The translations under genes were made by a program, and so were the position numbers. Positions 4,730-32,696 of a stretch of DNA of 47,212 nucleotides are shown here, piece by piece. The notes under the pieces were generated by a model, which was not told the DNA's origin, did no database searches, and worked only from the letters and a program-made list of their open reading frames with translations. Position 1 is the stretch's first letter. Every line of letters starts with the position of its first letter. Origin of the DNA: an uncultured beta proteobacterium (GTDB lineage: Bacteria; Pseudomonadota; Gammaproteobacteria; Burkholderiales; Rhodocyclaceae). The stretch is taken from contig CAIXSK010000062.1 in NCBI GenBank assembly GCA_903922075.1, positions 1 to 47,212 of the forward strand, given 5' to 3'.

Positions 4730-4803
4730 GCGGGCGTCGTATAATGGTAATACCCTAGCTTCCCAAGCTAGAGCCGTGGGTTCGATTCCCATCGCCCGCT
4801 CCA
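4730..4803 (+). tRNA. tRNA-Gly (anticodon CCC)
   Basis: This is a 74-nt cloverleaf with encoded CCA. The acceptor arms GCGGGCG and CGCCCGC pair fully, with a T discriminator before CCA. The anticodon arm is CTAGC-TTCCCAA-GCTAG, giving anticodon CCC (reads GGG). The T-arm contains GTGGG-TTCGATT-CCCAT. The gene is the attachment landmark for the Tn7-like element, which starts 28 bp beyond the CCA end. The tRNA is intact, so the host keeps it. Confidence 0.97.
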
Positions 4804-4826
4804 CATCGAATACTCGCAGGTCGTTG

Positions 4827-4831
4827 ATCTG
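4827..4831. repeat. Left copy of the 5-bp target-site duplication (ATCTG)
   Basis: ATCTG directly precedes the TGTGCC terminus of the transposon and recurs directly after the other terminus (33736-33740). Five base pairs is the duplication length of Tn7-family transposition. Confidence 0.93.
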
Positions 4832-4907
4832 TGTGCCGTTAAGCATAAAGTGTCCGCCCGGACAGCTTATGCTTTATTTCCCGATAAGACACATTTTGCT
4901 TTATCGG
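4832..4907. repeat. tRNA-proximal transposon end with three TnsB-like sites
   Basis: Terminal site P1 (4832-4855) begins TGTGCCGTTAAGCATAA. Site P2 (4860-4879) reads GGACAGCTTATGCTTTATTT on the plus strand. Site P3 (4881-4907) runs from CCGATAAGACA to TTTATCGG. P1 faces outward, whereas P2 and P3 point the opposite way, in the same orientation as the sites of the distal end. P1 and P2 together form an imperfect hairpin followed by TTTATTT. These sites should bind the TnsB half of the transposase. Confidence 0.85.
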
Positions 4908-4959
4908 AAATTTATGGCTGTCGTCAGACGGTTTTCCCGGGCCCCCAAGCACCAGACGT

Positions 4960-4985
4960 AAAAAAACCGGCCATGTAGCCGGTTC
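4960..4985 (-). terminator. Rho-independent terminator of the tnsAB-tnsC-tniQ operon
   Basis: Read on the minus strand, AACCGGC-TACATG-GCCGGTT is followed by a T-run. It lies 24 nt beyond the tniQ stop and inside the transposon end, so it stops transposase transcripts before the tRNA gene. Confidence 0.85.
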
Positions 4986-5009
4986 TTTGTACATTTCGAA
5001 TTTGTTCGG

Positions 5010-6347
5010 TTATTTTGCGGCTTCAGACTCGAAATCTGGCCTCATCAGGTGACTTTGTACGTCCTTGAGATTCAGGAGGAGATTGCTCAAGGGCGCCAGA
5101 ATTGGAGCTGGCACCCGGGCGATGACCTCACGTAGGGTGACCGACTTTCCCTCTGCCCAAATATCAATGCAAGCCTGCTCGAGATGCGGCCATGCATTGA
5201 CAACATGTTCATCCTGACGCCGGCGTAGATAGTCCTTCCAGCGCTCGCCGAGTTGCCGAGTGAGCATATTCGCGCGTAGATACAGCAGTCTGGTATCGAT
5301 ATTTAGTCGCTGTGCTGCCTCTCGCACGGTGATTGGCGTCGGCAACACAAGAAATGCCTGGAGTTGGTTTTCAATTTCTGTCCAGTTTCGCTCACGCTTC
5401 ACCGTGCGAGTTCGTGGTTTGGGCTGGGGCAGGTTCAGAACTAGCTGAGGCTCAATTTGCGGGCACACCCACGTCGATAAATCTCCGCTCAAAAGCTGTG
5501 TCAGGCTGGCTCCACTGTGAGCTGCAATCTTTAGGCTGGCCTTCAGGGTTGGTGTGCCATCACCCTTCAACCAGTTGTGGACAGTGCTTTTGGCGACGCC
5601 AATACGTCGAGCGAAGAGAGCACTTTGCCCGTTGTCCATCTCCTCGATGATTTGCGATATTGCATTGATGAGGTTGTCGCGCGTTGGTGTGCTCGCCAAA
5701 GTTTGCTGAGCATGAACCAACTCACCAATTTGCCGTGCGGCCCATCGTTCAGCAGGGTCGATTGTGGTAGTAGCTGGCATTTCCCCCGCTTTCCCAAGGA
5801 ACTCTCCACAATGAGTGCACCAGCCGGGAACTACATAGGCAGCGGTATGACGAATATTGTCTTTACCGCAATGAGGGCAATGTGTCTCGAGCGAGCAAGC
5901 GTGTCGCGAACAAACGGAAACCTCAGCAGACTCCCAAGCCAGGCGGAAATAGGGTTCCCGGCCTTGTGCAAGGTCCTCGGCAAAGCAGGAAGGACAGAAT
6001 TGGCCTCGCGTGACGATGGAAAGGCCACTTCGGGAAATGACGTATTGCCATGGCAGGAAGGTTAATTTGTCCAGGTTCGGGACAGCGGTGAGTTCTGACA
6101 GAGCGGCCGACCAGGTTTCAGCCGACTCACAAGTGCTAGCCAATCGCCGTTGGTGCCAGTCGAATTGCTGGCTGACATCGTGCTCGATACGTTGTGCAAT
6201 CGAGCGCGAGAGCGCCAAGGTGGATACCGAGTGAGATACTGCGAGCCGGCAGAAGTAGCTGGGTAGGCTTTCAACATCGCCGGTGCCTTCGCCCAAAGGT
6301 TGAAGGGCATGCAACTCGGAGCGTGGGTTGTTGAGCACGGAATTCAT
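5010..6347 (-). CDS. tniQ: TniQ/TnsD-family target-site selection protein
   Basis: This 445-aa protein has an N-terminal TniQ domain (LPSYFCRLAVSHSVSTLALS) with a zinc-ribbon region: CPSC near residue 120, CSRH and CPHCG near 150-160, CTHCG near 180. A helix-turn-helix follows (ARRIGVAKSTVHNWLKGDG, about 245-265), then a C-terminal region with another HTH-like segment (TVREAAQRLNIDTRLLYLRA). The size is close to TnsD, which binds a fixed chromosomal site and recruits TnsC, rather than to the short TniQ of CRISPR-associated elements. The gene overlaps tnsC by 4 nt (ATGA) and is last in the operon. Given where the element sits, the inferred target is the tRNA-Gly gene; the sequence does not prove the DNA contact. 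Confidence 0.9.
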   Translation of the reverse strand: MNSVLNNPRSELHALQPLGEGTGDVESLPSYFCRLAVSHSVSTLALSRSIAQRIEHDVSQQFDWHQRRLASTCESAETWSAALSELTAVPNLDKLTFLPWQYVISRSGLSIVTRGQFCPSCFAEDLAQGREPYFRLAWESAEVSVCSRHACSLETHCPHCGKDNIRHTAAYVVPGWCTHCGEFLGKAGEMPATTTIDPAERWAARQIGELVHAQQTLASTPTRDNLINAISQIIEEMDNGQSALFARRIGVAKSTVHNWLKGDGTPTLKASLKIAAHSGASLTQLLSGDLSTWVCPQIEPQLVLNLPQPKPRTRTVKRERNWTEIENQLQAFLVLPTPITVREAAQRLNIDTRLLYLRANMLTRQLGERWKDYLRRRQDEHVVNAWPHLEQACIDIWAEGKSVTLREVIARVPAPILAPLSNLLLNLKDVQSHLMRPDFESEAAK

Positions 6348-7392: not shown

Positions 7393-10098
7393 TTAAAAAG
7401 TGTCAAAGTCAGGAAGGGTTTGCGGTGCTGTCGCCTCAGGCAGCGAACCGCTGGAAGGGATGGAAGGTGATGACCTGTCTTCCGCCATGGATGGGGCGGT
7501 ACTCGATGTTTCCTTGGTGAGGCTGAATTTTTTCAGGGGAGCAACGGGATTGATGCTGCCCACTTGCAACGTGTTGTAGAGCGATTTGTTTTCTTGCTGC
7601 CGCTCCAGTGCGGCGGCCAGCGCACCCTCAGGTGTGAAGACCTGCATGAACTCCCGTAGGCGCTGGCTGGCTTGCGCATCGTTCGCGTCAGCGCCACTGC
7701 GGCGGGTGTATTCCTCAGTCAGGGCACGCCGCTCGATTTCGGTCAGTTGGCCCAAGCCGACCAAGTTGCGACAGGTCGCGTGGAGCCAGCGGTCTTTGAA
7801 GCGAACGTACACGGATGAGGCATCCCACGGGTCATAGCGGACGGGTAGACTTTGACCGGCGACGCGAGGGTCGCGGAATTCCGGGTGCCAGTACAACTGC
7901 TCATTCACCTTGACGCCGCGTTGGCGGTTGACGAGGCGAACACCACCGTAGTCGACCGGCGGGCAGGTCGCAATCAGGAAATCCTGGTTGAAGAGAATCT
8001 GCCGCTGCGGGCGGGAGCCACTTTCTTTCAAGCCACGCTGAAATGCTTCTCGGGGGCTGCAATCCAGCGCGGGATGGCGCTCGTTGTCGTAATACTCGGT
8101 GGCCCAGTATTCAAGGCCAAAGTACATCGCTTCCAGTGTCCATTCCGCAAAATTCACCGGCAGATGCTTGCCGGTCACCATCCGCACGTTCTTGGTGGCT
8201 TTGGTGTTGCCGGGCAAGTTATGGACATATTCGCTGTGCGCCCGTCCGAACATGCGTTCGAGAACCGCGCCATGCCGCGGCTGGCCGGCCGGCCGAAAAC
8301 GCAGATGGACTCCCATCACCTGGAGGAAGGTTTCAAACGCTGACGACATGAAATCGCGGCCGTTATCGACCACGATGAACTCAGGCAATCGTCCGAAGCG
8401 GTTGACCATGTCGCGTATCACCATCATCACGGAGTGATAGGACGGTGGGTCGAAGGTCAGATATATCGCGACGACACGGCGCGACCAGGCGTCGACGGCC
8501 AGAGAGAGCCAAGGGCGCCCCAAGGGTTTGCCGGAACGGCTGGAAACCAACTCGATGTCGAGCTGGGTATGGTCGATATGTACATACTGAAACGGACGGC
8601 TACCATGGACGGGCGTGTCGGCGTACAGAACATCGACAAACTCACTCATCTGATAGGCCATTCGTTTGCCATGACGAACGCGCAGGTCGTGCGCAGTTTC
8701 TTCGGCCTTGATGCGGGCGATGAGGGTCGGGTAGGACGGCGCCTTGATACCGGCTTCGTCACAGGCCGCCTTCAGAATTCGGTAGCACGCCTTGTAGTTG
8801 ATGGCTTCATGGCTGCGCCAGTGAGTCTCGATGACATTCTTGAGAACGTCATCCTGCGTTTCCGTCAGTCGGGCGGTGCGATTGCCTCGAGCATCCGTAC
8901 GCGGCACCAGGGCCAGCACTTCATGGCCGCCATTGGCCAGGGCCGCATTCTGACGGGCTTGCCAGCGGCGTTGGGTACGGTCGCAGACGATGGCCAGGTG
9001 AGTGTCCGACTGCAATATGGCCTGGCGCTGCAACGCAACGTCTAACTGAGCCTGCGTATAACGGGCCAGGTCCAGTTTGCTACTTCCAGCCTCGATAACC
9101 GGTGAAATGCGCCCATTTCGAAGGGCATCTGTTAGCCATTCACGGGATAGTGTTACGGGTGAGCCAGCGCGGCGGGTGCAGACGACTTCCGATTCGCCGA
9201 CGAGAGACATCGTCAGTTCCTGGGATTCGTACTCGAAGCGAGTTCCCTCGGAAATATCGAGGACGAAATGTTCCTGGCCAGGAACTGAACCGACATGAAC
9301 CTCGCCCGCCATGAAGTCGCGTACCGTGGTGTCGCGGTAAAGCCGGCAACGTCTGGGCTCCATCAGGGTTTCACGGTCGAGGTCGGCAACAACCTGATGG
9401 TCGGCAACGGCCTTGAGCAGGACGTCTGCGGAGAAGCCATAGGGTTCGACCATCAATTCGGCCAGATAACAGGCGCCATGTTGTGAAAGTGCCGCCGTCA
9501 GACGCTGCAAGTCACCTTCAGGGCAGGGCTCTGCCGCAGGGTGGAAATAGTCTGCGAGGTGCAGTAGGTTTTCTACACGACGACGAGGGAAGGCTTCATC
9601 GCTGTAGATTCGATAGCGGATGCCCAGTTCTGCTAGCTGACGTTCAATCTGGGGAGATGACCACGTCCCGTCTGTGGCTTTGATATAGCGATACGGGTAT
9701 CTCTCCGCCAGTCGAGTCAACTTCTGCTCCGACTTCCACTCTTCGAGGGTAAAACCGTCCTCTTGAATGACCAGAAAGTCTGGGAAATGCTGAATCTTGC
9801 GAATCTCACCAGTGGCAGTATCTACGAGCTCCAGTTTTAGCTCGCAGGGCTGCGCGTAATACTCGATGACCTGCTTGTTGAACTCATGGTCGACGGCGGC
9901 GGCAAACTCGATATGCCGGCTCTCCGTTCGGATTTCACGTCCCATCTTCCGGCTGGCCATCAATGTAATGACATTCCCGCCACGCGATTTAACCTCGCGT
10001 ACAGGGGCCAGGGTGCGTGCCTTCAAAATGAGTTCGCGCCCGGCACGAGGTGTGCCGAGGTGCTCGAAGAGTTCGGTAATCTGTTCCTTGTTCAACAT
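7393..10098 (-). CDS. tnsAB: Fused TnsA-TnsB transposase (TnsAB)
   Basis: A single 901-aa chain combines both strand-cutting enzymes. Residues about 40-170 form a TnsA-like PD-(D/E)xK nuclease: E64 in RHIEF, D107 in HFPDFLV, and E120-x-K122 in LEEWKSE. A linker and HTH-rich region follow, then a DDE integrase core: D509 in VHIDHTQLD, D578 in FIVVDNGRDF, and E614 in AVLERMFG, with 35 residues between the last two. A Mu-type C-terminal beta-barrel follows (PVRYDPWDASSVYVRF). TnsA cuts the 5' ends and TnsB the 3' ends, giving cut-and-paste. The ATG at 10098 has AGGTC 4 nt upstream; the longer ORF to 10257 overlaps the divergent promoter region and is rejected. Confidence 0.94.
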   Translation of the reverse strand: MLNKEQITELFEHLGTPRAGRELILKARTLAPVREVKSRGGNVITLMASRKMGREIRTESRHIEFAAAVDHEFNKQVIEYYAQPCELKLELVDTATGEIRKIQHFPDFLVIQEDGFTLEEWKSEQKLTRLAERYPYRYIKATDGTWSSPQIERQLAELGIRYRIYSDEAFPRRRVENLLHLADYFHPAAEPCPEGDLQRLTAALSQHGACYLAELMVEPYGFSADVLLKAVADHQVVADLDRETLMEPRRCRLYRDTTVRDFMAGEVHVGSVPGQEHFVLDISEGTRFEYESQELTMSLVGESEVVCTRRAGSPVTLSREWLTDALRNGRISPVIEAGSSKLDLARYTQAQLDVALQRQAILQSDTHLAIVCDRTQRRWQARQNAALANGGHEVLALVPRTDARGNRTARLTETQDDVLKNVIETHWRSHEAINYKACYRILKAACDEAGIKAPSYPTLIARIKAEETAHDLRVRHGKRMAYQMSEFVDVLYADTPVHGSRPFQYVHIDHTQLDIELVSSRSGKPLGRPWLSLAVDAWSRRVVAIYLTFDPPSYHSVMMVIRDMVNRFGRLPEFIVVDNGRDFMSSAFETFLQVMGVHLRFRPAGQPRHGAVLERMFGRAHSEYVHNLPGNTKATKNVRMVTGKHLPVNFAEWTLEAMYFGLEYWATEYYDNERHPALDCSPREAFQRGLKESGSRPQRQILFNQDFLIATCPPVDYGGVRLVNRQRGVKVNEQLYWHPEFRDPRVAGQSLPVRYDPWDASSVYVRFKDRWLHATCRNLVGLGQLTEIERRALTEEYTRRSGADANDAQASQRLREFMQVFTPEGALAAALERQQENKSLYNTLQVGSINPVAPLKKFSLTKETSSTAPSMAEDRSSPSIPSSGSLPEATAPQTLPDFDTF

Positions 10099-10161
10099 CG
10101 CTGACCTAAAAATCCTGCTGATGTGAACGTGTAGGAACGGCACCTGCGCTAGAATGACGAT

Positions 10162-10179
10162 TCGGTCGTATATGACCGA
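10162..10179. promoter_or_regulatory. Palindromic operator candidate between tnsAB and the DUF6471 gene
   Basis: TCGGTC-GTATAT-GACCGA is a perfect 6-bp inverted repeat with a 6-bp AT-rich centre. It lies in the 124-bp divergent gap, just downstream of a TAGAAT -10-like box (10150-10155, plus strand). It is well placed to control the DUF6471 gene and perhaps tnsAB. The centre also holds TATACG on the minus strand, a possible -10 for tnsAB. Confidence 0.5.
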
Positions 10180-10222
10180 TTTGTGGCTTCTTGCCCCTAT
10201 CGTCACCTTGAGCCAGAACCCA

Positions 10223-10534
10223 ATGCGCGAATCGAAATCCACCCAAAAGAGAGTCACGGGGCCGCTGAAGCTTCGACCGGAGGTTGCCTACACACCATGG
10301 GAGGACCGAGCGAAGGAGGTGTTGGTCGAGGAGATGCGGAAGAGGAAACTTGGCTACAAGGAGTTGGCCCGGCTCTTGGAGCCTTACGGCATCGATGAGA
10401 CACCAGACCAAATTAACCGCAAGGCGAACCGGAAGCGGTTTTCGGCGGCGTTCCTGTTGGCGTGCCTGGCAGCGATGGAGGTGACTGCAGTCGAGGTGCC
10501 GACTCAGCTTGGGGTGCCGAAATCGTACAAATGA
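10223..10534 (+). CDS. DUF6471-domain small protein, likely regulator
   Basis: This 103-aa basic protein matches the DUF6471 pattern: WEDRAKEVLVEEMRKRKLGYKELARLLEPYGIDETPDQINRKANRKRFSAAFLLACLAAMEV. The central helices look like a small helix-turn-helix, and the C-terminal FSAAFLLACLAAM helix is the family signature. I chose the ATG at 10223 (MRESKSTQ) because the track start at 10154 lies upstream of the palindrome, inside the likely promoter. It is divergent from tnsAB and may set transposase expression by binding that palindrome; this is inference, since the family has no assigned function. The alternative 126-aa start cannot be excluded. Confidence 0.75.
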   Translation: MRESKSTQKRVTGPLKLRPEVAYTPWEDRAKEVLVEEMRKRKLGYKELARLLEPYGIDETPDQINRKANRKRFSAAFLLACLAAMEVTAVEVPTQLGVPKSYK

Positions 10535-10873: not shown

Positions 10874-12619
10874 ATGAACCACCAAGCCCTTTCTTCCTTT
10901 ATTTGGTCTGTTGCCGACCTCTTGCGCGGCGACTACAAGCAATCCGAGTACGGCAAGGTCATCCTGCCCTTTACCGTCCTACGTCGCCTCGATTGCGTGC
11001 TGGAGGCCACCAAGCCCGCCGTGTTGGCCGAGTTCGAGGCCAAGTTCAAAGCGGGGCTCAACCCCGACCCGTTCCTGCTGCGCAAGTCAGGGCAGAGCTT
11101 CTACAACATTTCGCCGCTCGACCTCGGCAAGCTGCTGGGTGACCAGGACCACATCCGAGAAAACCTTTACGCCTACATTCAGGGCTTTTCGCCGGCCGCA
11201 CGGGACATCTTCGAGCGCTTCGAATTCTTCACCCAAGTCGAGCGCCTAGCCAAGGCAGGGCTGCTCTATCTGGTGACCGAGAAGTTTGCCAACATCGACC
11301 TGCACCCGGATGTCGTCGATAACGCCCAGATGGGCCTGGTCTTCGAGGAATTGATTCGCAAGTTCGCTGAAATCTCCAACGAGACCGCCGGGGAGCACTT
11401 CACGCCCCGCGAAGTCATCCGACTGATGGTGAACCTGTTGTTCATCGAGGACGACGACGTGCTCACCTCCGGCAATGCCGTGGTGCGTACCCTGTACGAC
11501 CCGACGGCTGGCACGGGGGGCATGCTTTCAGTGGCCGGGGAATACCTGTTGGAACACAACCCAGCGGCCCGTCTGACCCTGTTCGGCCAGGAACTCAACG
11601 ACGAGTCGTACGCCATCTGCAAGGCCGACATGCTCATTAAGGGCCAGGACGTGGCCAATATTGTGGTCGGCAACACTCTCTCGGACGATGGCCACAGCGG
11701 CCGCAAGTTCGACTACATGTTGTCGAACCCGCCTTTCGGTGTTGAGTGGAAGAAGGTCGAAAAGGAGGTCCGCAAGGAATACGAGCAGAAGGGCTTCGAC
11801 GGCCGTTTCGGTCCTGGCTTGCCGCGTGTGTCGGACGGCTCCATGCTGTTCCTACTGCACCTCATCAGCAAGATGCGTCCGGCCGTCGATGGCGGCAGCC
11901 GCATCGGCATCGTGTTGAACGGCAGTCCGCTTTTCACCGGTGGTGCCGGGAGTGGAGAGAGTGAAATCCGCCGCTACGTTCTGGAAAACGACCTGGTGGA
12001 AGCCATCATCGGCCTGCCCACCGACATGTTTTATAACACAGGCATCGCCACTTACGTCTGGATACTCTCCAACAAGAAACCGGCTGCCCGCAAAGGCAAG
12101 GTCCAGCTCATCGACGCCAGTGTCTATTGGCAGAAGATGCGTAAGAGCCTGGGCAGCAAGCGCAAGGAGATGAGTGACGAGCATATTGCCAAAGTTACCA
12201 AGCTGTTCGGCGAGTTCATCGAGGCCGAGGAGGACGGGAAACCTATTTCCCGCATCTTTAACAACGCCGACTTCGGCTACACCACCATCACGGTTGAGCG
12301 CCCACTACGCGACGAAGCTGGCAATGTTGTGCTCGGCACCAAGGGCAAGCAGAAGGGCAAGCCACAGCCGGATTCGGCGCTACGCGATACCGAGAACGTC
12401 CCGCTCAACGAGGGCATCGACGCCTACTTCGCCCGCGAAGTGTTGCCCCATGCGCCGGATGCCTGGATAGATACCGAAAAATCCAAGGTCGGCTACGAGA
12501 TTCCCTTCAACCGCCATTTCTACGTCTTCACCCCACCGCGCAGCCTGCATGAGATTGATGAAGAACTGAAGGGTGTGACTGCCAATATTATGCGGATGCT
12601 GGAAGGACTGGCGGAATGA
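10874..12619 (+). CDS. hsdM: Type I restriction-modification DNA methyltransferase subunit HsdM
   Basis: This 581-aa protein has the N-terminal helical HsdM_N domain ([37 protein letters not shown]) and an N6-adenine methyltransferase domain with SAM motif [12 protein letters not shown] (about residue 212) and catalytic NPPF (about 289; [11 protein letters not shown]). Methylase motif preface [17 protein letters not shown] is typical. With HsdS it methylates one adenine on each strand of a bipartite site; with HsdR it forms the restriction complex. It opens an operon in which each stop overlaps the next start; its own TGA overlaps the ATG of a 47-aa ORF by 4 nt. Confidence 0.96.
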
Positions 12620-12759
12620 AGTGCCCCTGGCATATCCAAATATGGCTTGAGTTTTCTTATCAGGAAACCGATAATGCGCTTAACAACACCCGCCAAGGCT
12701 ATGCGCGAAAGCGTATCCTCAAACCGGCGGGTTCCTCGTTTACGGGGCGCGAAAAATGA
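12616..12759 (+). CDS. 47-aa small ORF coupled between hsdM and abi
   Basis: This ORF is too short for the ORF track. It starts [20 protein letters not shown] and ends SSFTGREK. The ATG overlaps the hsdM TGA (ATGA, 12616-12619), and its TGA overlaps the abi ATG (ATGA, 12756-12759), so it fills the gap exactly and keeps ribosomes moving from hsdM to abi. The same 4-nt arrangement at both ends argues that it is translated. Composition is aromatic-rich at the N-terminus and basic at the C-terminus, with no membrane segment or known motif. It could be a small modulator of the Abi protein, or simply a coupling ORF. Confidence 0.55.
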
Positions 12760-13655
12760 AGAGCGCCTTTACTAAACCCGCCACCACCTACGCCGAACAA
12801 GTTGCCAAGCTCCAGCAACGCGGCATGCTGTTCTCTGACCCGAACAAAGCGGCGTTTTACCTCCAGCATCTCAACTATTATCGCCTTGCAGCCTACTGGC
12901 TCCCCTTCGAGGCCGACCACGGCACTCATACATTTCTACCAGGGAGTCAATTCGACAATGTTCTGAATCTTTACATATTTGACCGCGAACTGCGCCTGCT
13001 GGTGCTAGATGCCATCGAACGCATCGAGGTCTCGGTCCGCAGCCAATGGGCCTACCAGATGGCTCACCTCCATGGGCCGCATGCACATCTCGACCCCGCG
13101 CTGGCCAAGGATTGGACAAACTGGGTCAGCGACAGCCATCAATTGCTGGGTGAAGTGGAGCGCTCGAAGGAAAACTTCATTGAGCACCTGAGGCAAACCT
13201 ATAGCGATGCTCTGCCGCCCCTATGGGCCGTTTGCGAAATCATGTCGCTCGGACTGCTCTCACGCCAGTACAAGAACCTCAAGCCCATGGCAACGCGCAG
13301 GGCCATTGCCAGCCAGTACAGCCTTGACCAGCAGGTTTTTGAATCCTGGCTGCACCATCTGACCTTCGTCCGCAATGTCTGCGCCCACCACAACCGGCTG
13401 TGGAACCGCGAATTCACGATTACTCCGCAACATCCCCGTAGCAAGCCCCGCATCCTCAGCGGTGAATTCATTGGCAGTTCACGCAAGCTCTATAACACCT
13501 TGGTCATCCTTACGCACTTTATGGACACCATCGCGCCCGGCCATCACTGGCGGCAGCGCTTAAAAACTCTGCTCACGCAGCACGCCATCCCTGTTCAGGC
13601 GATGGACTTCCCGGCCGATTGGGAAGAACGAGCGATTTGGCAGGAGGCAGCATAA
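12756..13655 (+). CDS. Abi_2-family (AbiD/AbiF-like) HEPN abortive-infection protein
   Basis: This 299-aa protein matches the Abi_2 family: [21 protein letters not shown] at the start, [19 protein letters not shown] (the conserved YYRL.AYW block), [29 protein letters not shown], and a C-terminal HEPN RNase-like motif R-X4-H ([13 protein letters not shown], about residues 204-216). The family causes growth arrest or death on phage infection, probably by RNA cleavage. It lies between hsdM and hsdS inside the R-M operon; its TAA shares a base with the hsdS ATG. The position recalls PrrC, an RNase kept silent by its host R-M complex. A guard role here is inference. Confidence 0.88.
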
Positions 13656-14983
13656 TGGGCTTGCTAAGGTATCCAGAGAGCAAGGAAAGCGGGGTTGCCT
13701 GGTTGGGGAAAGTGCCGTCGCATTGGCAGGTGCATCGCCTGAAGAACTTGTTTGAAATTCGTAAGCGCATTGTGGGTGAAGAAGGACATCAGGTCTTATC
13801 CATAACACAGCGAGGCATAAAGGTTAAGGACATTGAGAGCAATGACGGCCAACTCTCGATGGACTACTCAAAGTACCAAATAGTGCACCCAGGTGACTTT
13901 GCGATGAATCACATGGACTTGCTAACCGGGTTCGTCGACATTTCGCCGTACGCTGGCGTAACCAGCCCCGACTATCGGGTTTTTGCTGTGCGAGATGGCG
14001 TGCAGTGCGAGCCGAGATATTTCCTCTACCTATTGCAGAACGCCTACCGACAGAAAATCTTCTACGCCTTTGGTCAAGGAGCCTCTGAATTCGGCCGCTG
14101 GCGCTTCCCGACTGACCAATTCAACGACTTTCGATTTCCGTGCCCTCCATCTAGCGAACAAACCGCCATCGCCACCTTCCTCGACCGCGAAACCGGGAAA
14201 ATCGACGCTCTGGTTGCCGAACAGGAAAAGCTCCTCGCTCTGCTCGCCGAAAAGCGCCAGGCCACCATTTCCCATGCGGTCACCAAGGGCTTGAATCCGG
14301 ATGCGCCGATGAAAGATTCCGGCGTAGCTTGGCTGGGAAAGGTGCCGGAGCATTGGGGCATGAAGCGCATAAAGGACTGCGGATGTGAAGTAGTGGACTG
14401 CAAGAATAGAACTCCAGAACCCCATCCCGATGGGGACTACTTTGTAGTCAGAACGTCCTGCGTTAAGGACGGCAGGTTCGACCCGGAACCGGGGTATCGG
14501 ACTGATGAAAGAAATTTCATCGAATGGACCGCGAAGGGCAAACCGCAGACAGGAGACGTGCTCTTTACACGCGAAGCTCCTACAGGCGAGGCATGTCTAG
14601 CACCGCAAGGGCTCGATTTCTGTCTCGGGCAGCGAATGATGTACATCCGACCGCCAGAGCAGGTGCTACGCAGCGAATTCCTGCTCTACTCAATCTATGG
14701 TGGCCTTGCACGTGAGCGAATCAGCGAAAAATCGAAAGGAAGCACAGTCGGGCACCTGAGGGTAGGTGAAGTAGGAGAACTGCCGTTGCTTCTCCCCCCG
14801 CTTGACGAACAACGGGAGCTTGTTGAGTTCGTCGCTGACGAACTCAACAAGCTCCAATCGTTGGAAGTCGAATCCGAACGTGCAATCGCTTTACTTAAAA
14901 AACGCCGCTCTGCCCTCATCGCTGCCGCCGTCACCGGCCAAATAGACGTTCGCGGCCTCGTCATCGAACCGGAGGCTGCTTGA
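13655..14983 (+). CDS. hsdS: Type I R-M specificity subunit HsdS
   Basis: This 442-aa protein has two target-recognition domains in tandem. Each half opens with the same phrase, SGVAWLGKVPSHW near the N-terminus and SGVAWLGKVPEHW in the middle, followed by a variable TRD and a conserved coiled-coil spacer (EQTAIATFLDRETGKIDALVAEQEKLLALLAEKR, and DEQRELVEFVADELNKLQ). Each TRD reads one half of the bipartite DNA site. The ATG at 13655 overlaps the abi TAA by one base, with AGGAGG 7 nt upstream; the track start at 13619 is too early. Both TRDs are full length, so the specificity should be functional, but the recognised sequence cannot be read from the protein. Confidence 0.95.
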   Translation: MGLLRYPESKESGVAWLGKVPSHWQVHRLKNLFEIRKRIVGEEGHQVLSITQRGIKVKDIESNDGQLSMDYSKYQIVHPGDFAMNHMDLLTGFVDISPYAGVTSPDYRVFAVRDGVQCEPRYFLYLLQNAYRQKIFYAFGQGASEFGRWRFPTDQFNDFRFPCPPSSEQTAIATFLDRETGKIDALVAEQEKLLALLAEKRQATISHAVTKGLNPDAPMKDSGVAWLGKVPEHWGMKRIKDCGCEVVDCKNRTPEPHPDGDYFVVRTSCVKDGRFDPEPGYRTDERNFIEWTAKGKPQTGDVLFTREAPTGEACLAPQGLDFCLGQRMMYIRPPEQVLRSEFLLYSIYGGLARERISEKSKGSTVGHLRVGEVGELPLLLPPLDEQRELVEFVADELNKLQSLEVESERAIALLKKRRSALIAAAVTGQIDVRGLVIEPEAA

Positions 14984-17900
14984 TGCCTGCCTTGCACCAG
15001 GAAATCCACTTCGAAGCTGCCATCTGCACTCACCTCGGCCAACATGGCTGGTTGTATGCCGAAGGCGATGCCGCCCACTACGACCGGCAGAACGCCCTGT
15101 TTTTGCCCGACCTGCTGACCTGGGTGGAAACCACCCAGCCTGAGGCTTGGCAGGCGCTGACCAAGACCCACGGCGCCATCTTGCGCAAGGTGCTGGCGGA
15201 GCGGGTGCGCAAATGCCTCAATGAGCAAGGTACGCTGGAAGTGCTGCGCCGAGGCGTCGAGATGGTCGGCCTCAATAAGCCACTGTCCCTGGTGCAATTC
15301 AAGCCGGCCCTAGGCCTCAACCCGGCCATCCAGGCCGCCTACGAAGCCAACCGCTTGCGCGTGGTGCGTCAGGTGCACCACTCGCTCAACAATGCCAATG
15401 AGGCGGTAGACCTGGTGCTGTTCGTCAATGGCGTCGCCGTGGCCACGGCTGAACTCAAATCTGACTTCACCCAGAGTGTCAGCGATGCGGTCGACCAGTA
15501 CCGTTTCGACCGTCATCCGCAGCCCAAGTGCGGCCACGTCGAACCACTGCTGGCTTTCCCTGGCGGTGCATTGGTACATTTCGCCGTCAGCCAGTCGGAA
15601 GTGATGATGAGCACCAAGCTGGCTGGCACCAGCACCGTATTCCTGCCCTTCAACCGGGGTAATGCCGGTGGTGCGGGCAATGCGCCCAATCCCTTCGGCT
15701 TCGCCACCCATTACTTGTGGGAGGAAGTCTGGCAGCGCGACAGCTGGCTGGAAATCCTTGGCCGCTACCTTATCGGCAAGCGCAACGACAAAAAGCAGCT
15801 CACCGGCCTCATCTTCCCCCGTTATCACCAGCTTGACGCCACCCGGAAGCTGGTAGCCGATGTGTTGGAGCAAGGCCCTGGTGAGCGCTACCTGATTCAG
15901 CATTCAGCCGGCTCCGGCAAGACCAACTCGATTGCCTGGTCCGCTCATTTCCTCGCCGACCTGCACGATGCGGCGCACCAGAAGGTTTTTGATAGCGTGC
16001 TGGTGGTGTCCGACCGTACCGTGCTCGACGCGCAATTGCAGGAAGCCATCTTCGACTTCCAGCGCACCACCGGCGTGGTGGCGACCATCACCGATGAGCA
16101 TGGCAGCAAGAGCGGCCAGCTCGGCCAGGCGCTCAAGGACGGCAAGAAAATCATCGTCTGCACCATCCAGACCTTCCCCTTCGCGCTGGAAGCCGTGCAG
16201 AAGCTCGCTGCCACCGAAGGCAAGCGCTTCGCAGTGATTGCCGACGAAGCCCACAGCTCGCAGACCGGTGAAGCGGCCGCCAAGTTGAAGCAACTGCTCT
16301 CGGCCGAAGAGTTGCAGGAACTCGCCGACGGCGGCGAGGTGGATACCGAAACCGTATTGGCTGCCCAGATGGCCGCCAAAGCCAGCCAGGAAAAGAACAT
16401 CACCTACCTGGCCTTCACGGCCACCCCCAAGCAGAAGACACTGGAACTGTTTGGCCGCAAGAACGCCGACGGCCTGCCCGAGCCTTTCCACGTCTATTCC
16501 ATGCGTCAGGCCATCGAGGAAGGTTTCATCCTCGACGTACTGAAGAACTACACCACCTACAAGATGGCGTTCAAGCTGGCCCACAACGGCGAGGAATACG
16601 ACGAGCAGCAAGTCGAGAAGTCGGAAGCACTCAAGGGCATCATGCACTGGGTGCGCCTGCACCCGTACAACATCAGCCAGAAGGTACAGACCGTCGTCGA
16701 GCACTTCCGCGAGAACGTGCAGCCGCTACTGAACGGCCAGGCCAAGGCCATGGTCGTGGTCAGTAGCCGCAAGGAAGCGGTGCGCTGGCAGAAGGCTATC
16801 AGCGCCTACATCGCCAAGCAGCAATACAAGCTTGGCGTGCTGGTCGCCTTCTCCGGCGAAATCAACGACCCCGACAGCTACCCGGAACCGGTCAGCGAAC
16901 ACAGCAAGCTGCTGAACTCCGGCCTCAAGGGCGACATCCGCGAAGCCTTCAAAGGACCGGACTATCACCTGCTGTTGGTGGCCAACAAGTTCCAGACTGG
17001 ATTTGACCAGCCCTTGCTGTGCGGCATGTATGTCGACAAGCGTCTGGCCGGCATTCAGGCAGTGCAGACGCTTTCGCGCCTCAACCGTGCCCACCCCGGC
17101 AAGGACACGACCTACATCCTCGATTTCGTCAATGAACCGCAGGACGTCCTGGCCGCCTTCAAGACCTATTACGAGACTGCGGAACTCGAAGCCAATACTG
17201 ACCCGCATCTGGTGCTCGACCTGCGGGCCAAGCTGGATGCGACCGGTTACTACGATGGCTTTGAAGTCGACCGCGTGGCGGAAGCCGAAACCAACCCGAA
17301 GGCCACTCAGGCCCAGCTCAGCGCTGCCATCGCTCCGGTGGCCGACCGTCTGCTGAAACGCTACAAGGCGGCACAACACGACAAAGCGATAGCCGAAGCC
17401 AACCACGACGAAAAAGCCGCCCAGGCCGCCAAGGACATCATGGCCGCGCTGACCCTGTTCAAGGGTGACATGGGCGCCTTCAATCGCCTGTATGCCTTCC
17501 TGTCGCAGATATTTGATTACGGCAATACGGACATTGAGAAGCGCTATCTCTTCTTCAAGCGCCTTATCCCGCTGCTCGACTTCGGACGTGAGCGGGAAAC
17601 CGTCGACCTCTCCAAGGTGACCCTGACCCATCACACCCTGAAGAACAAAGGTCAGCAGACCCTGGACCTGAAACAAGGTGAGGCGCAAAAGTTACCGCCG
17701 ATGACCGAAACCGGCAGCGGTACCCTGCACGACAAGGAAAAGGCCTTCCTCGATGAAATCATCCAGAAGGTGAATGGCCTGTTCGAGGGGGAACTCTCGG
17801 ACAATGACCAACTGGTCTACGTGAATGGTGTCCTGAAGGGGAAGCTGCTCGAGAACGAAACCTTGGTGCAACAGGCGGCCAACAACACCAAGGAGCAGTT

Positions 17901-18105
17901 CGCCAATTCGCCAGACCTGTCACAGGCAATCCTGCACGCCATCATGGATGCGCTGGATGCGCATACGGCGATGAGCAGCCAGGCGCTGAATTCGCAGCGG
18001 ATTCAGGATGGGTTGAAGGATACTTTGTTAGGGCCGGCGCAGTTGTACGAAACCTTGCGTGCCCGGTCACAAGCGCTGTCCGCTGAAAAGTATTCGAGAA
18101 TGTAG
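14983..18105 (+). CDS. hsdR: Type I restriction endonuclease/translocase subunit HsdR
   Basis: This 1040-aa protein starts at the ATG at 14983 (overlapping the hsdS TGA by one base; GGAGG at 14971-14975); the TTG one codon earlier is a less likely start. The N-terminal nuclease domain shows the PD-ExK strand VDLVLFVNGVAVATAELKSD. The motor has Walker A QHSAGSGKTNSIAW (near residue 307), DEAH-like VIADEAHSSQTG, motif III TYLAFTATPKQKT, and a late RLNRAHPGKDTTYILDF. The C-terminal helical region binds HsdM. It translocates DNA and cuts at a distance from unmethylated sites. The operon ends here, convergent with trfA 27 bp further on. Confidence 0.96.
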   Translation: MPALHQEIHFEAAICTHLGQHGWLYAEGDAAHYDRQNALFLPDLLTWVETTQPEAWQALTKTHGAILRKVLAERVRKCLNEQGTLEVLRRGVEMVGLNKPLSLVQFKPALGLNPAIQAAYEANRLRVVRQVHHSLNNANEAVDLVLFVNGVAVATAELKSDFTQSVSDAVDQYRFDRHPQPKCGHVEPLLAFPGGALVHFAVSQSEVMMSTKLAGTSTVFLPFNRGNAGGAGNAPNPFGFATHYLWEEVWQRDSWLEILGRYLIGKRNDKKQLTGLIFPRYHQLDATRKLVADVLEQGPGERYLIQHSAGSGKTNSIAWSAHFLADLHDAAHQKVFDSVLVVSDRTVLDAQLQEAIFDFQRTTGVVATITDEHGSKSGQLGQALKDGKKIIVCTIQTFPFALEAVQKLAATEGKRFAVIADEAHSSQTGEAAAKLKQLLSAEELQELADGGEVDTETVLAAQMAAKASQEKNITYLAFTATPKQKTLELFGRKNADGLPEPFHVYSMRQAIEEGFILDVLKNYTTYKMAFKLAHNGEEYDEQQVEKSEALKGIMHWVRLHPYNISQKVQTVVEHFRENVQPLLNGQAKAMVVVSSRKEAVRWQKAISAYIAKQQYKLGVLVAFSGEINDPDSYPEPVSEHSKLLNSGLKGDIREAFKGPDYHLLLVANKFQTGFDQPLLCGMYVDKRLAGIQAVQTLSRLNRAHPGKDTTYILDFVNEPQDVLAAFKTYYETAELEANTDPHLVLDLRAKLDATGYYDGFEVDRVAEAETNPKATQAQLSAAIAPVADRLLKRYKAAQHDKAIAEANHDEKAAQAAKDIMAALTLFKGDMGAFNRLYAFLSQIFDYGNTDIEKRYLFFKRLIPLLDFGRERETVDLSKVTLTHHTLKNKGQQTLDLKQGEAQKLPPMTETGSGTLHDKEKAFLDEIIQKVNGLFEGELSDNDQLVYVNGVLKGKLLENETLVQQAANNTKEQFANSPDLSQAILHAIMDALDAHTAMSSQALNSQRIQDGLKDTLLGPAQLYETLRARSQALSAEKYSRM

Positions 18106-18132
18106 CTTGAGTCTGTAGGCTGATTCTGCCAA

Positions 18133-19227
18133 TTAACAAGCAATTGGTATCCCTGCCGACGATTCCGATAGGACCGTCTTCCATCTCAAAAGCTCGACGG
18201 TGAGGTGTGTATCGGTGAGCTCAAATGCCGACACCCTCACGTCGCCTGAGACGTCATCACGCTGTAGCCGCTCCAAGGAGCGCTTCAGCCGTCGGCGAAA
18301 CTCGCGGAGTTCGCAGACCACACCGCTCCACTTGAAAAGGTCTTCAATTTTCACTGGGTATGGCTTGGCGTGCGTGCTGTAGTAGCTCGCCAGCCACGCC
18401 GGCAGGCCTGAGTATTCGTGCAGCGCGGTGTTGCTGACCGTACTCCAGGCCTCTGGCCCAAAAAGCCTGGCCATGGAGTCCAGAACGCGAAAGGAAATGA
18501 GGTCGCTGCCCTTCAACAATCGCTCCGGCGTATCTCGGCCTTGGTAGCCGTCATCGAATAAGACATCCAATAAGCGCGGCATCGGGATGTCCACGCGTTT
18601 CACCCGGATGCGCAGGTGGGCGGCATTGAGCCGAATGAGACTGTCACGGATGGCCCTGTGCGTGTTGGCGCAGTAGGTCACATTTAGGTCCCGCGCCAGT
18701 TGCCAGAAGGTCACGCTAACCCACCGCAACTCCCCACCTGGACAGAGGGGCCGCTCGTCACGGTAGTAGTTCAGACAGGCAGCAAAAACACGTCGGTCGT
18801 AATCACCCAGAGGGTGCCCCGTCAGTGTCAGGGACGTATCGCCCTGTACGCTTATCTCGACGTTCATCAGCGGCTTGTCGGTCACCTCGGAAGCTCCGAA
18901 CAAAGATGAGCGCAGCAAGGTATTCGGGATTCCCACCGTCGCTTCCCGCCAAGTAGGCAGGTAAACATCGTCGCCGCGCCGAACTGCCCGACGCTGCCGG
19001 GCCTGCCGCATCTCAGTGACTGAAGCGTTGTCGGGTAGCACCAGGACGGGTTCCTCCTCGGCAGCCATCTGCCGTAGCTGACTGCGTGCAACCGATTCGA
19101 GCGTTGCGGCTGCTGCATAGCTAAGGTCCTGGGTAAATATGTCCGTTGCGGTTTCAGCAGCGCGTCGCGCTGCCGCAGCTTGTGCCTGAAGCTCAGCAAT
19201 CTGCTCAGCGCTGCGCCGCTTGGCCAT
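18133..19227 (-). CDS. trfA: TrfA-family plasmid replication initiator
   Basis: This 364-aa protein resembles the IncP initiator TrfA over its C-terminal two thirds: DDVYLPTWREATVGIPNTLLRSSLFG, then HPLGDYDRRVFAACLNYYRDE, a winged-helix-like SVTFWQLARDLNVTYCANTHRAIRDSLIRL, and KPYPVKIEDLFKWSG. TrfA binds iterons at oriV and loads host helicase. The N-terminal 70 residues are an Ala/Glu-rich helix. The ATG at 19227 (MAKRRSAEQ) has AGGAG 7 nt upstream; the extension to 19320 overlaps the upstream gene. Translation is probably coupled, as the RHH gene ends 23 nt inside trfA. An initiator inside a transposon suggests captured plasmid DNA, or a gene kept as decoy or helper; the function here is unknown. 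Confidence 0.88.
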   Translation of the reverse strand: MAKRRSAEQIAELQAQAAAARRAAETATDIFTQDLSYAAAATLESVARSQLRQMAAEEEPVLVLPDNASVTEMRQARQRRAVRRGDDVYLPTWREATVGIPNTLLRSSLFGASEVTDKPLMNVEISVQGDTSLTLTGHPLGDYDRRVFAACLNYYRDERPLCPGGELRWVSVTFWQLARDLNVTYCANTHRAIRDSLIRLNAAHLRIRVKRVDIPMPRLLDVLFDDGYQGRDTPERLLKGSDLISFRVLDSMARLFGPEAWSTVSNTALHEYSGLPAWLASYYSTHAKPYPVKIEDLFKWSGVVCELREFRRRLKRSLERLQRDDVSGDVRVSAFELTDTHLTVELLRWKTVLSESSAGIPIAC

Positions 19228-19411
19228 GTCGGGCTCCTGATGCGCGTTCAACGTAGGCGGCCAAGAGACCGCGAAGAACGACCGATGCACAGAGGCCTTG
19301 CACCGCGCAAAGCGAGGCAAATTCGTTCTTCAGGTCATCCGGAACCCAGACTTTCATCTGGACCGAGCCGGCACGATGCCGGTCGCCAGGTTTTTCGATT
19401 TTGGTTTTCAT
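19205..19411 (-). CDS. Small ribbon-helix-helix-type DNA-binding protein upstream of trfA
   Basis: This 68-aa protein starts MKTKIEKPGDRHRAGS. The segment VQMKVWVPDDLKNEFASLCAVQGLCASVVLRGLLAAYVE has the beta strand followed by two helices typical of CopG/Arc-like regulators. The ATG at 19411 has GGAGAAG 5 nt upstream. It overlaps trfA by 23 nt, so it is very likely its co-transcribed regulator, as copy-control proteins are on plasmids. Two short palindromes just upstream of its start are good operator candidates. Family assignment is by pattern only. Confidence 0.7.
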   Translation of the reverse strand: MKTKIEKPGDRHRAGSVQMKVWVPDDLKNEFASLCAVQGLCASVVLRGLLAAYVERASGARHGQAAQR

Positions 19412-20200: not shown

Positions 20201-22540
20201 ATGCAAGATACCTTGACTGCCCTTCAAAACGAGAACGCTCGCCTGATTGCCTTGCTCGAGGAACATGGTATCGAATGGCGCTTGCCTCAACCTCCAACAG
20301 CCACTGTGCCAGTCATTGAACCGGTTCTGCTGTCGACAGCAGAAAAAGTAGCGCTTTTCCGTGCTCTGTTTCGAGGCAGGACCGATGTTTATCCCGTTCG
20401 CTGGGAAAGCAAAACGACAGGAAAGGCGGGTTACTCGCCTGCCTGCGCCAATGAGTGGCGCTCAGGTATCTGCATCAAGCCGCGCGGAAAGTGTTCGGAC
20501 TGCGGGCAGCGGCTCTTGCTGCCGCTCACCGATTCGGTCCTTTATGACCATTTGGCCGGCGAACATACGGTCGGTGTCTATCCCTTGCTTGAAGACGATA
20601 CTTGCCACTTCCTGGCTGTCGATTTTGACAAGCAGGATTGGCGGGAGGATGCGCAGGCGTTTGCGCAGTCATGTCGAGCGCTTGGGGTGCCTGCTGCCTT
20701 GGAGATTTCCCGCTCCGGCAATGGTGCTCATGCCTGGATGTTTTTCGAGCACAAGGTCGATGCCAGGGATGCCAGGCGTCTGGGGAGTGCGCTCATCAGC
20801 CATACCTGTGCGCGTACCAAGCAATTACAACTGGAATCCTACGACCGTCTGTTTCCCAACCAGGACACCATGCCCAGGGGCGGTTTCGGCAACCTGATTG
20901 CGTTGCCGCTCCAGAAGCATGCCCGGGAAAAAGGAGGCAGTGTTTTCGTGGATGACGACCTTCAGGTTTACGCAGACCAATGGGCCTTCTTGGCATCGGT
21001 GAAGCGGATGAAGGTCGCAGATATGGAAGCAGTTATTTTCCAGGCCACGGGGAGTTCTCACCCCCTCGATGTGACGTTTATCGAGGAAGAAGATAACGAA
21101 ACACCGTGGAGGCGACCGCCGGCGGCGAGCAAAAAATTGGCTGGCATCATGCCCAAGCAGCTGCGTATAACGCTCGCCAATCAGCTCTACTTCGAGAAAG
21201 AGGCCATGCCACAAATCCTGGCCAACCGCCTCATTCGCTTGGCGGCCTTCCAGAATCCTGAGTTCTATAAGGCCCAGGCGATGCGTTTTCCGGTATGGGA
21301 TACACCTCGGGTCATCGGCTGCGCGGAGAACTATCCTCAGCATATCGCCTTGCCCCGTGGCTGCCTGGATGCCGTGCTCGAACTTTTGTCAGCGAACAGC
21401 ATCGAGCCAATCCTCGTTGACGAGCGTTTTTCGGGGGAGCCAATCGAAGCGCATTTTGAGGGATTGCTGCGTATCGACCAGGAAGCGGCTGTATCCGCCA
21501 TGATGCACCAGGAGGTTGGTGTCCTATGCGCGCCAACGGCCTTTGGCAAGACAGTAACGGCAGCGGCCATGATTGCCAGGCGAGGCATCAATACCCTTAT
21601 CCTGGTTCATCGGACCGAGTTATTGAAACAGTGGCAGGAACGGCTGAAAGCCCTTCTGGGCCTTGGCAAGGAAACGCTAGGTACCGTCGGGGGCGGCAAG
21701 TCGAAGGCCACTGGAAAAATCGACATTGCCGTCATGCAATCTCTCTCACGCAAGGGTGAGGTTAATCCCATTGTCGAGAACTACGGGCAAATCATTGTCG
21801 ATGAGTGTCACCATATCGGTGCTATTTCGTTTGATGCGCTATTGAGGCGGGCCAGGGCCAAGTACGTCCTTGGCCTGACCGCAACGCCAATACGCCGTGA
21901 TGGACAACATCCCATCATCTTCATGCAATGCGGACCGGTCCGGTACAAGGCGGAGCGACCGGCGACGGCGCCGCATCGACTGGAAGTGCATCCCCGGAAT
22001 CGTTTTCAGGGAATTGAGTTGCCGCCTGAGGCAGCCATTCAAGACGTGTTCCGGTACTTGGCAGCAGATACCAAGAGGACACGGGAAATTGCCCAGGAGG
22101 TCATCGACAACTTCAGGGCTGGCAGGAAAATTCTTGTGCTCACCGAGCGCACTGACCACCTCGATGAGCTGGAAAAAGCGCTTCTGCCAGAGATTCCCCA
22201 GCTTTTTCTGCTGCACGGCCGAATGTCGCGCAAGCAGCGTAACGCCATCACCGTGGATTTGGATGCCTTGCCACCTGATGTGCCCCGCGTACTTCTTGCC
22301 ACAGGTAAATTGGTGGGGGAGGGGTTTGACCACCCAGCCCTGGACACCTTGATACTCGCTATGCCCGTTTCCTGGAAAGGAACCTTGCAGCAATACGCGG
22401 GGCGCCTGCACCGCGAGCACAGCACGAAGTCGGACGTACGTGTCATCGATTTTGTGGACGCCAGCCACCCTGCGCTCAATCGGATGTGGGAGAAACGGCT
22501 CCGTGGCTACCGGGCGATGGGGTACGGCGTGGTTACCTAA
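20201..22540 (+). CDS. TOTE-type archaeo-eukaryotic primase fused to SF2 helicase
   Basis: This 779-aa protein opens with a short coiled coil (LTALQNENARLIALLEEHGIEW). A primase-polymerase domain of the TOTE conflict-system type follows: CSDCGQRLLLPLTDSVLYDHLAGEHTVGVYPLL (zinc-like CxxC and lead-in), the metal-binding DxD in HFLAVDFDKQDW, and the SGNGAHAWMFF motif. The C-terminal half is a superfamily 2 helicase with Walker A APTAFGKTVTAA, DECH box IIVDECHHIGA, LTATPIRRDG, and motif VI QYAGRLHREH. It is full length and stands alone. The family is linked to mobile-element and phage conflict, with priming and unwinding as predicted activities. Next to trfA it might also serve replication. It has a weak ribosome-binding site and ends convergent to jetD. 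Confidence 0.88.
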   Translation: MQDTLTALQNENARLIALLEEHGIEWRLPQPPTATVPVIEPVLLSTAEKVALFRALFRGRTDVYPVRWESKTTGKAGYSPACANEWRSGICIKPRGKCSDCGQRLLLPLTDSVLYDHLAGEHTVGVYPLLEDDTCHFLAVDFDKQDWREDAQAFAQSCRALGVPAALEISRSGNGAHAWMFFEHKVDARDARRLGSALISHTCARTKQLQLESYDRLFPNQDTMPRGGFGNLIALPLQKHAREKGGSVFVDDDLQVYADQWAFLASVKRMKVADMEAVIFQATGSSHPLDVTFIEEEDNETPWRRPPAASKKLAGIMPKQLRITLANQLYFEKEAMPQILANRLIRLAAFQNPEFYKAQAMRFPVWDTPRVIGCAENYPQHIALPRGCLDAVLELLSANSIEPILVDERFSGEPIEAHFEGLLRIDQEAAVSAMMHQEVGVLCAPTAFGKTVTAAAMIARRGINTLILVHRTELLKQWQERLKALLGLGKETLGTVGGGKSKATGKIDIAVMQSLSRKGEVNPIVENYGQIIVDECHHIGAISFDALLRRARAKYVLGLTATPIRRDGQHPIIFMQCGPVRYKAERPATAPHRLEVHPRNRFQGIELPPEAAIQDVFRYLAADTKRTREIAQEVIDNFRAGRKILVLTERTDHLDELEKALLPEIPQLFLLHGRMSRKQRNAITVDLDALPPDVPRVLLATGKLVGEGFDHPALDTLILAMPVSWKGTLQQYAGRLHREHSTKSDVRVIDFVDASHPALNRMWEKRLRGYRAMGYGVVT

Positions 22541-29461: not shown

Positions 29462-29517
29462 TGGCGGCACCTTACATCATGGCTTGTTTTGAGCATTGTC
29501 CTATCCAAAATAGATGA

Positions 29518-29568: not shown

Positions 29569-29585
29569 GTGCTACAGTGGTTGGC

Positions 29586-30473: not shown

Positions 30474-30474
30474 G

Positions 30475-31119: not shown

Positions 31120-31192
31120 GACAATGATTCTAAGAAGGCCTATGCGATTATTTTATGCGGATTGGCTTGATGTATCTGGAAGGAATCGAAAG

Positions 31193-32389: not shown

Positions 32390-32640
32390 GAATTGCTGAC
32401 CCGATAAAGCAAGAAGCCCATGTCGCTGAACATGGGCTTCGTAAATCTTGAACCTTGGCGCTCACGGCCAAGGTGAACGGTTCATTACCGTTGGGGTGCT
32501 ACTTGGTCATCTTGTCGAACTGCGGCGGATTTTCAGTCATGCTGCCTCCAATCGCGTTGTTCCTGAAGGGCCTGACCAACTGCCCGTCAGGCTTCAATTC
32601 CAGATTACTCCTCCAGACAAAAAAGTCTACTAGCGGTACG
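32390..32640. other. Noncoding stretch between the HTH gene and the YccA terminator
   Basis: No ordinary gene is visible. Contents: a TnsB-site-like 12-mer CCGATAAAGCAA (32401-32412), an 11-bp perfect hairpin (32413-32440), a 13-codon minus-strand ORF (MTENPPQFDKMTK, 32499-32540) preceded by GGAGG, and a 7-bp hairpin GCCTGAC/GTCAGGC near 32570-32593. The ORF is too short to judge. Confidence 0.4.
32413..32440. terminator. Hairpin downstream of the HTH gene, terminator-like
   Basis: GAAGCCCATGT-CGCTGA-ACATGGGCTTC gives an 11-bp perfect stem 23 nt after the stop at 32389. Neither side has a strong T-run, so termination may be partial. Confidence 0.4.
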
Positions 32641-32670
32641 GAAAAACGGCCCGCCAACTGGCGAGCCGTT
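32641..32670 (-). terminator. Rho-independent terminator of the BI-1/YccA gene
   Basis: On the minus strand AACGGCTCGCC-AGTT-GGCGGGCCGTT is followed by TTTTT, 26 nt beyond the yccA stop. Stem and U-tail are both good. Confidence 0.8.
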
Positions 32671-32696
32671 GTGGCACCGGTCTGTATCGGGCTGGG

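What the first reader, a model, noticed from the sequence alone, without database searches (positions are those of the whole stretch)
4730..6347. TniQ/TnsD-like protein probably targets tRNA-Gly(CCC)
The insertion starts 28 bp past the CCA end, comparable to the fixed distance of Tn7 from glmS. The TniQ is long, with zinc ribbon and HTH segments, and no CRISPR partner exists. This suggests protein-guided use of a tRNA gene as the safe site.
Basis: partly seen in the sequence, partly recalled or inferred. Interest (0 to 1): 0.85.

Follow-up and report, generated by a model that had tools for sequence, protein, structure and literature searches.

The report
tRNA-targeting Tn7-like defence transposon
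This is a 29-kb Tn7-like jumping element whose targeting protein most likely recognises the end of a glycine tRNA gene and inserts exactly 28 bp beyond it; its relatives use other tRNA genes, or the tmRNA gene, at almost the same distance, so the element belongs to a known kind but shows clearly how such elements change landing sites.

Summary
Observation confirmed, interpretation supported. The element is window 4832-33735 (28,904 bp): 10-bp perfect terminal repeats (TGTGCCGTTA/TAACGGCACA) and a perfect 5-bp duplication (ATCTG). It starts 28 bp after the CCA of tRNA-Gly(CCC); same-genus genomes carry the empty site. It encodes a TnsA-TnsB fusion, TnsC and a 445-aa TniQ, with no CRISPR array, cas gene or second TniQ/TnsE found. 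By sequence and predicted fold the TniQ is full-length TnsD-like; its best match is TnsD of the type I-B2 CAST bound to att DNA (8v32).

Five elements whose TniQ is 86-100% identical all sit at tRNA-Gly(CCC), 28-29 bp out; one apparent exception is explained by a second Tn7-like element wedged in later. At 33-60% identity the target is another gene (Ser-TGA, Ala-CGC, Val-CAC, Met-CAT, or tmRNA in five genomes), still 28-30 bp past the CCA. All 17 resolvable junctions fit, and target choice follows the TniQ tree with the minimum possible number of switches.

TnsAB-fusion elements with tRNA-targeting TnsD are published, so this is a new member of a known kind. Repeated use of tmRNA is, as far as I could find, unreported. 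Binding is inferred, not shown.

The parts
4730..4803 (+). tRNA-Gly(CCC) gene with encoded CCA: the attachment gene
   Evidence: ARAGORN; Rfam
4771..4806 (.). predicted TniQ/TnsD footprint (+23 to +58 from the centre of the duplication, taken over from Tn7): 3' third of the tRNA gene (T arm, acceptor 3' strand, CCA)
   Evidence: inference from PMC2918618; only the RNA-gene side is conserved among targets
4827..4831 (.). target-site duplication ATCTG, left copy
   Evidence: single copy in empty sites
4832..4908 (.). tRNA-proximal transposon end: terminal repeat TGTGCCGTTA and three TnsB-type repeats (4841-4856, 4859-4874, 4886-4901)
4961..4988 (.). terminator-like hairpin between tniQ and the transposon end
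   Evidence: inverted repeat
5010..6347 (-). TniQ/TnsD-like target selector, 445 aa
6344..7384 (-). TnsC/TniB AAA+ ATPase
   Evidence: PmcCAST TnsC 8fcu/8v32/9bw1 E 1.7e-42
7393..10257 (-). TnsA-TnsB fusion transposase
   Evidence: PmcCAST TnsAB 9bw1 E 8.7e-138
10154..10534 (+). DUF6471 protein, divergent from tnsAB; possible regulator (inference)
10874..18105 (+). cargo: type I restriction-modification HsdM, HsdS, HsdR with an AbiD/Abi_2 gene (12756-13655) inside
18133..19320 (-). cargo: TrfA-like replication protein
20201..22540 (+). cargo: TOTE-type primase-helicase
22715..29470 (-). cargo: Wadjet JetABCD
29577..33371 (.). cargo: WYL protein, DUF6988 protein, 432-aa unknown protein, Bax1-I family membrane protein
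33603..33735 (.). distal transposon end: three TnsB-type repeats plus terminal repeat TAACGGCACA
33736..33740 (.). target-site duplication ATCTG, right copy; the displaced tRNA terminator follows

Best explanation
A CRISPR-free Tn7-like transposon of the TnsA-TnsB-fusion branch (the branch that gave rise to I-B2 and I-D CASTs). Its single TniQ is a TnsD: it binds the 3' third of the tRNA-Gly(CCC) gene as double-stranded DNA, recruits TnsC, which spans the next ~25 bp, and TnsC delivers the TnsAB-bound ends so that the element inserts 28-29 bp past the CCA with a 5-bp duplication, leaving the tRNA gene intact. Shown: boundaries, duplication, empty sites, fixed spacing, lack of conservation of the intervening DNA, target following TniQ phylogeny, homology of all three proteins to the solved PmcCAST TnsABCD machine. 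Inferred: direct binding, exact footprint, which residues choose the tRNA (the C-terminal ~70 residues are the best candidate).
For: Boundaries and duplication; empty sites. Matches to PmcCAST TnsD 8v32 (profile E 7e-52; single sequence 2e-30; Foldseek E 1.5e-21 over 457 columns), TnsAB and TnsC. 17/17 resolvable junctions at 28-30 bp past a CCA end: 5 Gly-CCC, 5 tmRNA, 3 Ala-CGC, 2 Ser-TGA, 1 Val-CAC, 1 Met-CAT. Exact 5-bp duplications also for G110, G305, G116 and for tmRNA elements G1253 and G1356. Target follows the TniQ tree: 5 changes for 6 targets, shuffled mean 9.9, as low in 0 of 200. The region between CCA and the end is unconserved, while GTTCGA..C and CCA are invariant. G037's insertion landed 4 bp inside another element's end and L003's inside the terminator hairpin, so the flank does not matter. 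The spacing and footprint of Tn7 TnsD (+23 to +58, PMC2918618) fall on the 3' end of the tRNA; CyCAST inserts 30-33 nt past a tRNA-Leu gene (PMC10293859).
Against: No binding or transposition data. Invariant T-arm and CCA are common to nearly all tRNA genes, so their conservation alone does not prove they are read. Repeated use of Gly-CCC could partly reflect selection against insertions into operonic tRNA genes rather than molecular specificity. More distant TniQs (about 28-30%) include elements not at a tRNA (G018 in a comEC-like gene; G067 and G075 have no tRNA within about 40-60 kb on either side).
Confidence: 0.93

Rival explanations
1. TniQ reads only the universal tRNA T arm/CCA end, and the particular gene used is decided by selection (only isolated tRNA genes tolerate a downstream insertion).
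For: GTTCGANNC, C72 and CCA are the only invariant positions among targets; six different RNA genes including tmRNA are used at one geometry; the genome's other Gly tRNA has a very similar 3' end.
Against: About 40 genes in this genome carry the motif, yet five separate junctions of the window clade are all at Gly-CCC and each TniQ clade has its own gene.
Confidence: 0.2
2. The tRNA gene is a passive hot spot: insertion is attracted by transcription, a terminator hairpin or DNA structure downstream of tRNA genes, and TniQ does not bind the gene.
For: tRNA 3' ends are hot spots for many elements; other islands also occupy this tRNA-Gly.
Against: The spacing is exact to 3 bp over unrelated flanks, and insertion falls before, inside or at the edge of the terminator. 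The protein is a full-length relative of a TnsD solved on att DNA.
Confidence: 0.03
3. Targeting is RNA-guided by a CRISPR elsewhere in the genome acting in trans, with TniQ as adaptor.
For: The nearest solved relatives are from CAST elements; V-K elements use tRNA genes through guide RNAs (PMC11406308).
Against: No array or cas gene in the element; the TniQ is full-length TnsD-like with the extra C-terminal region, unlike the short CAST TniQ; spacing is as for TnsD homing.
Confidence: 0.02

Closest known systems
PmcCAST (Tn7744, type I-B2 CAST) TnsABCD homing machinery, PDB 8v32/9bw1
   Same: TnsA-TnsB fusion, TnsC and TnsD all match best here; TnsD homes to a tRNA gene (PMC11406308; a tRNA-Val target plasmid is named in PMC10293859).
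   Different: No CRISPR-Cas, no second small TniQ; host is a beta-proteobacterium; target is tRNA-Gly(CCC); cargo is a defence set.
CyCAST / McCAST (type I-D CAST) TnsD homing
   Same: Fused TnsAB, TnsD-directed insertion a fixed distance past a tRNA gene (30-33 nt at tRNA-Leu, PMC10293859).
   Different: No Cascade; spacing 28-30 bp; different RNA genes, including tmRNA.
Tn7 (TnsABC+D at glmS)
   Same: 5-bp duplication, TGT...ACA ends with repeated TnsB sites, ~25 bp between the footprint and the insertion point, attachment gene left intact.
   Different: TnsA and TnsB are fused; attachment gene is a tRNA gene; tniQ lies at the target-proximal end; no TnsE found.
Tn5053/Tn402 TniABQ
   Same: TniQ and TniB-like ATPase.
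   Different: Those lack TnsA, carry a resolvase and hunt plasmid res sites (own knowledge; PMC11406308 for res sites); here TnsA is present and the target is chromosomal.

Membership tests
Tn7-like transposon with fused TnsAB (I-B2/I-D CAST branch, CRISPR-free) | TnsA endonuclease fused to DDE TnsB | tested here: met
   Pfam TnsA N-terminal, rve and Mu C-terminal domains in one ORF; 9bw1 match over 57-901, E 8.7e-138
Tn7-like transposon with fused TnsAB (I-B2/I-D CAST branch, CRISPR-free) | TnsC AAA+ adaptor | tested here: met
   TniB/AAA_22; PmcCAST TnsC E 1.7e-42
Tn7-like transposon with fused TnsAB (I-B2/I-D CAST branch, CRISPR-free) | 5-bp target duplication and TGT-type inverted ends with repeated TnsB sites | tested here: met
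   further elements
TnsD (protein-guided target selector) | TniQ core plus long C-terminal DNA-binding extension homologous to a known TnsD | tested here: met
   8v32 full length by profile and by predicted fold
TnsD (protein-guided target selector) | Fixed insertion distance from a conserved gene, flank irrelevant | tested here: met
   28-30 bp in 17/17 junctions, unconserved flank
TnsD (protein-guided target selector) | Sequence-specific binding of the attachment gene | not testable with these tools
   needs a gel shift or footprint
CRISPR-associated transposon (CAST) | Cas effector and CRISPR array in the element | tested here: not met
   no array; no cas gene among the cargo
Tn5053/Tn402 family | TniA without TnsA, resolvase, res-site target | tested here: not met
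   TnsA domain present; chromosomal tRNA target

The most novel reading that the evidence does not exclude
One TniQ/TnsD lineage keeps a fixed geometry on the universal T-arm/CCA end of tRNA-like genes and changes only its choice among them (Gly, Ser, Ala, Val, Met tRNAs and tmRNA), so its phylogeny is a natural series of target-switch experiments for re-programming a TnsD; tmRNA as a repeated Tn7-type attachment gene would be new.
Probability: 0.45. Interest if true: 0.65.

Novelty: new member of a known kind. Interest (0 to 1): 0.5.

Why it matters
It gives a CRISPR-free, single-TniQ example of the branch from which two CAST types arose. With its relatives it forms a ready series (sister TniQs at 60% identity, different tRNA, same spacing) for finding which residues of a TnsD choose the target, an open question for programmable insertion. 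It also explains how defence genes (Wadjet, type I restriction-modification, AbiD) are delivered to a site that leaves the tRNA gene intact.

Tried and rejected
Viral contigs gave no relative. Profile searches of 369 class-level and 399 phylum-level genomes gave nothing beyond the window's own genome, so the close clade looks confined mostly to Burkholderiales. The 86% homologue in L004/G030, at first sight a counter-example, was resolved: a second Tn7-like element (ends TGAGAC..GTCTCA) sits between tRNA-Gly and the first element, and taking the flank alone gives 29 bp. G1239, with no tRNA next to its end, abuts another transposon end (TTTACGGCACA CAAG TGTGCCGTTAGG), so its original target is unresolved. 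G457's contig ends next to TniQ. No convincing distal end was found for G285, G1298, G1299 and G1340 in the stretches held; the G042 duplication is weakly supported. The NAR 2022 paper on type I-D elements was not held. Whether Gly-TCC, whose 3' end is nearly the same, is avoided by specificity or by selection could not be settled (the contig ends there).

Full report
ARAGORN and Rfam place tRNA-Gly(CCC) at 4730-4803 including the CCA. The only TGTGCCGTTA in the window is at 4832 and the only TAACGGCACA ends at 33735; immediately outside both lies ATCTG. That gives an element of 28,904 bp with a 5-bp target duplication, starting 28 bp after the CCA. Searching same-genus genomes with the two flanks joined returned many unbroken sites with one ATCTG followed by the tRNA terminator, so the empty site is real and the tRNA gene itself is untouched by insertion.

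The machinery is a TnsA-TnsB fusion, TnsC and TniQ, all transcribed towards the tRNA gene. Each has its best solved relative in the type I-B2 CAST of the Peltigera cyanobiont: TnsAB 9bw1 (E 8.7e-138), TnsC 8fcu/8v32/9bw1 (E 1.7e-42), and TnsD 8v32 for the TniQ (profile E 7e-52; single sequence 2e-30). An AlphaFold2 model of the window TniQ (mean pLDDT 82) matches 8v32 TnsD over its length (Foldseek E 1.5e-21, 457 columns). No CRISPR array, cas gene, second TniQ or TnsE was found in the element.

With 86-100% identity: window and G074 at 28 bp; L003, G030 and a G037 remnant at 29 bp, all at tRNA-Gly(CCC). These look like separate insertions: the duplications or flanks differ (for instance ATCTG, TCTGA, CGGGT). 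In G037 the element entered 4 bp inside the end of another transposon, and in L003 inside the terminator hairpin. G030 looked like an exception until its tRNA-Gly was found 29 kb away with a second Tn7-like element, carrying its own TniQ (about 29% identical), lying between.

With about 33-60% identity the gene changes but the distance does not: Ser-TGA (L005 28, G166 29), Ala-CGC (G110 28, G412 29, G1298 28), Val-CAC (G042 28), Met-CAT on a Caballeronia megaplasmid (L093 28), and tmRNA in five genomes (G285 29, G1253 30, G1299 28, G1340 29, G1356 30). Five of these (G1298, G1253, G1299, G1340, G1356) were found after the 28-29 bp rule had been seen, and served as a fresh test; they fell at 28-30. 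Exact 5-bp duplications were recovered for G110 (AAAGG), G305 (CTAGT), G116 (GCAAG), G1253 (GGCCT; a 5.6-kb element with almost no room for cargo) and G1356 (TAGAG).

Target choice follows the TniQ tree as closely as it can: six targets need five changes, the least possible; shuffled labels need 9.9 on average and none of 200 reached five. A wider tree including distant TniQs gives 8 changes against 12.7. Among the targets only GTTCGA..C, C72 and CCA are invariant, and the bases between CCA and the transposon are not conserved. About 40 genes in the window's genome carry the GTTCGA..CCA motif (my count of the tRNA-like ones among 58 pattern matches), so the T arm alone does not explain why this clade is always at Gly-CCC. 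The C-terminal 70 residues are 97-100% identical among Gly-CCC TniQs, 51-53% in the Ser sister clade and 17-29% elsewhere, which makes them the best candidate for the reading part. This is inference.

Geometry agrees with what is known. Tn7 TnsD covers +23 to +58 from the centre of the duplication and the flank is irrelevant (PMC2918618); in the window this is 4771-4806, the 3' third of the tRNA gene. CyCAST inserts 30-33 nt past a tRNA-Leu gene using TnsD alone (PMC10293859). The review PMC11406308 states that I-B2 and I-D CASTs come from TnsAB-fused elements whose TnsD uses different tRNA genes. PMC8649781 also notes Tn7-like insertion downstream of tRNAs. So the principle is known; the element is a new, CRISPR-free member. 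I found no report of tmRNA as a Tn7-type attachment gene in the held library, which is not proof of absence.

Limits: binding was not tested. Distant TniQs of about 28-30% identity are not all at tRNAs: G018 sits in a comEC-like gene with duplication GCGGG (the gene name is my reading of the flank), and G067/G075 have no tRNA within about 40-60 kb on either side. Specificity versus selection against operonic sites is not fully separated, above all for Gly-TCC, whose 3' end is nearly the same.

Noticed in passing
window 10874-29470: One element carries type I restriction-modification with an embedded AbiD gene, a TOTE-type primase-helicase and a complete Wadjet JetABCD set: a compact defence island.
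   Followed up: partly
window 18133-19320: TrfA-like plasmid replication protein inside the transposon; function there unclear.
   Followed up: no
window 32697-33371: Bax1-I (BI-1/YccA-like) membrane protein gene just inside the distal end of the element.
   Followed up: no
window 33864-35472: HTH protein and HipA-like kinase genes directly outside the distal end, next to the displaced tRNA terminator.
   Followed up: no
L084 626-655, L034, L035 (G030:C3 307426-343606): Two distantly related Tn7-like elements stacked at one tRNA-Gly, the second inserted between the tRNA and the first; a further partial copy of the tRNA 3' end lies at 351042.
   Followed up: partly
L168 (G1253:C20): A 5.6-kb Tn7-like element at tmRNA with duplication GGCCT and almost no room for cargo, possibly a minimal form.
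   Followed up: partly
L037/L095 (G018:C8 1065547-1085710): An element with a distant TniQ, TnsC and a TnsB fragment inserted in a comEC-like competence gene with duplication GCGGG, recalling Tn6022 in comM.
   Followed up: partly
L176 1495-1520 (G1239:C73): Two transposon ends facing each other 4-5 bp apart, another stacked insertion.
   Followed up: partly
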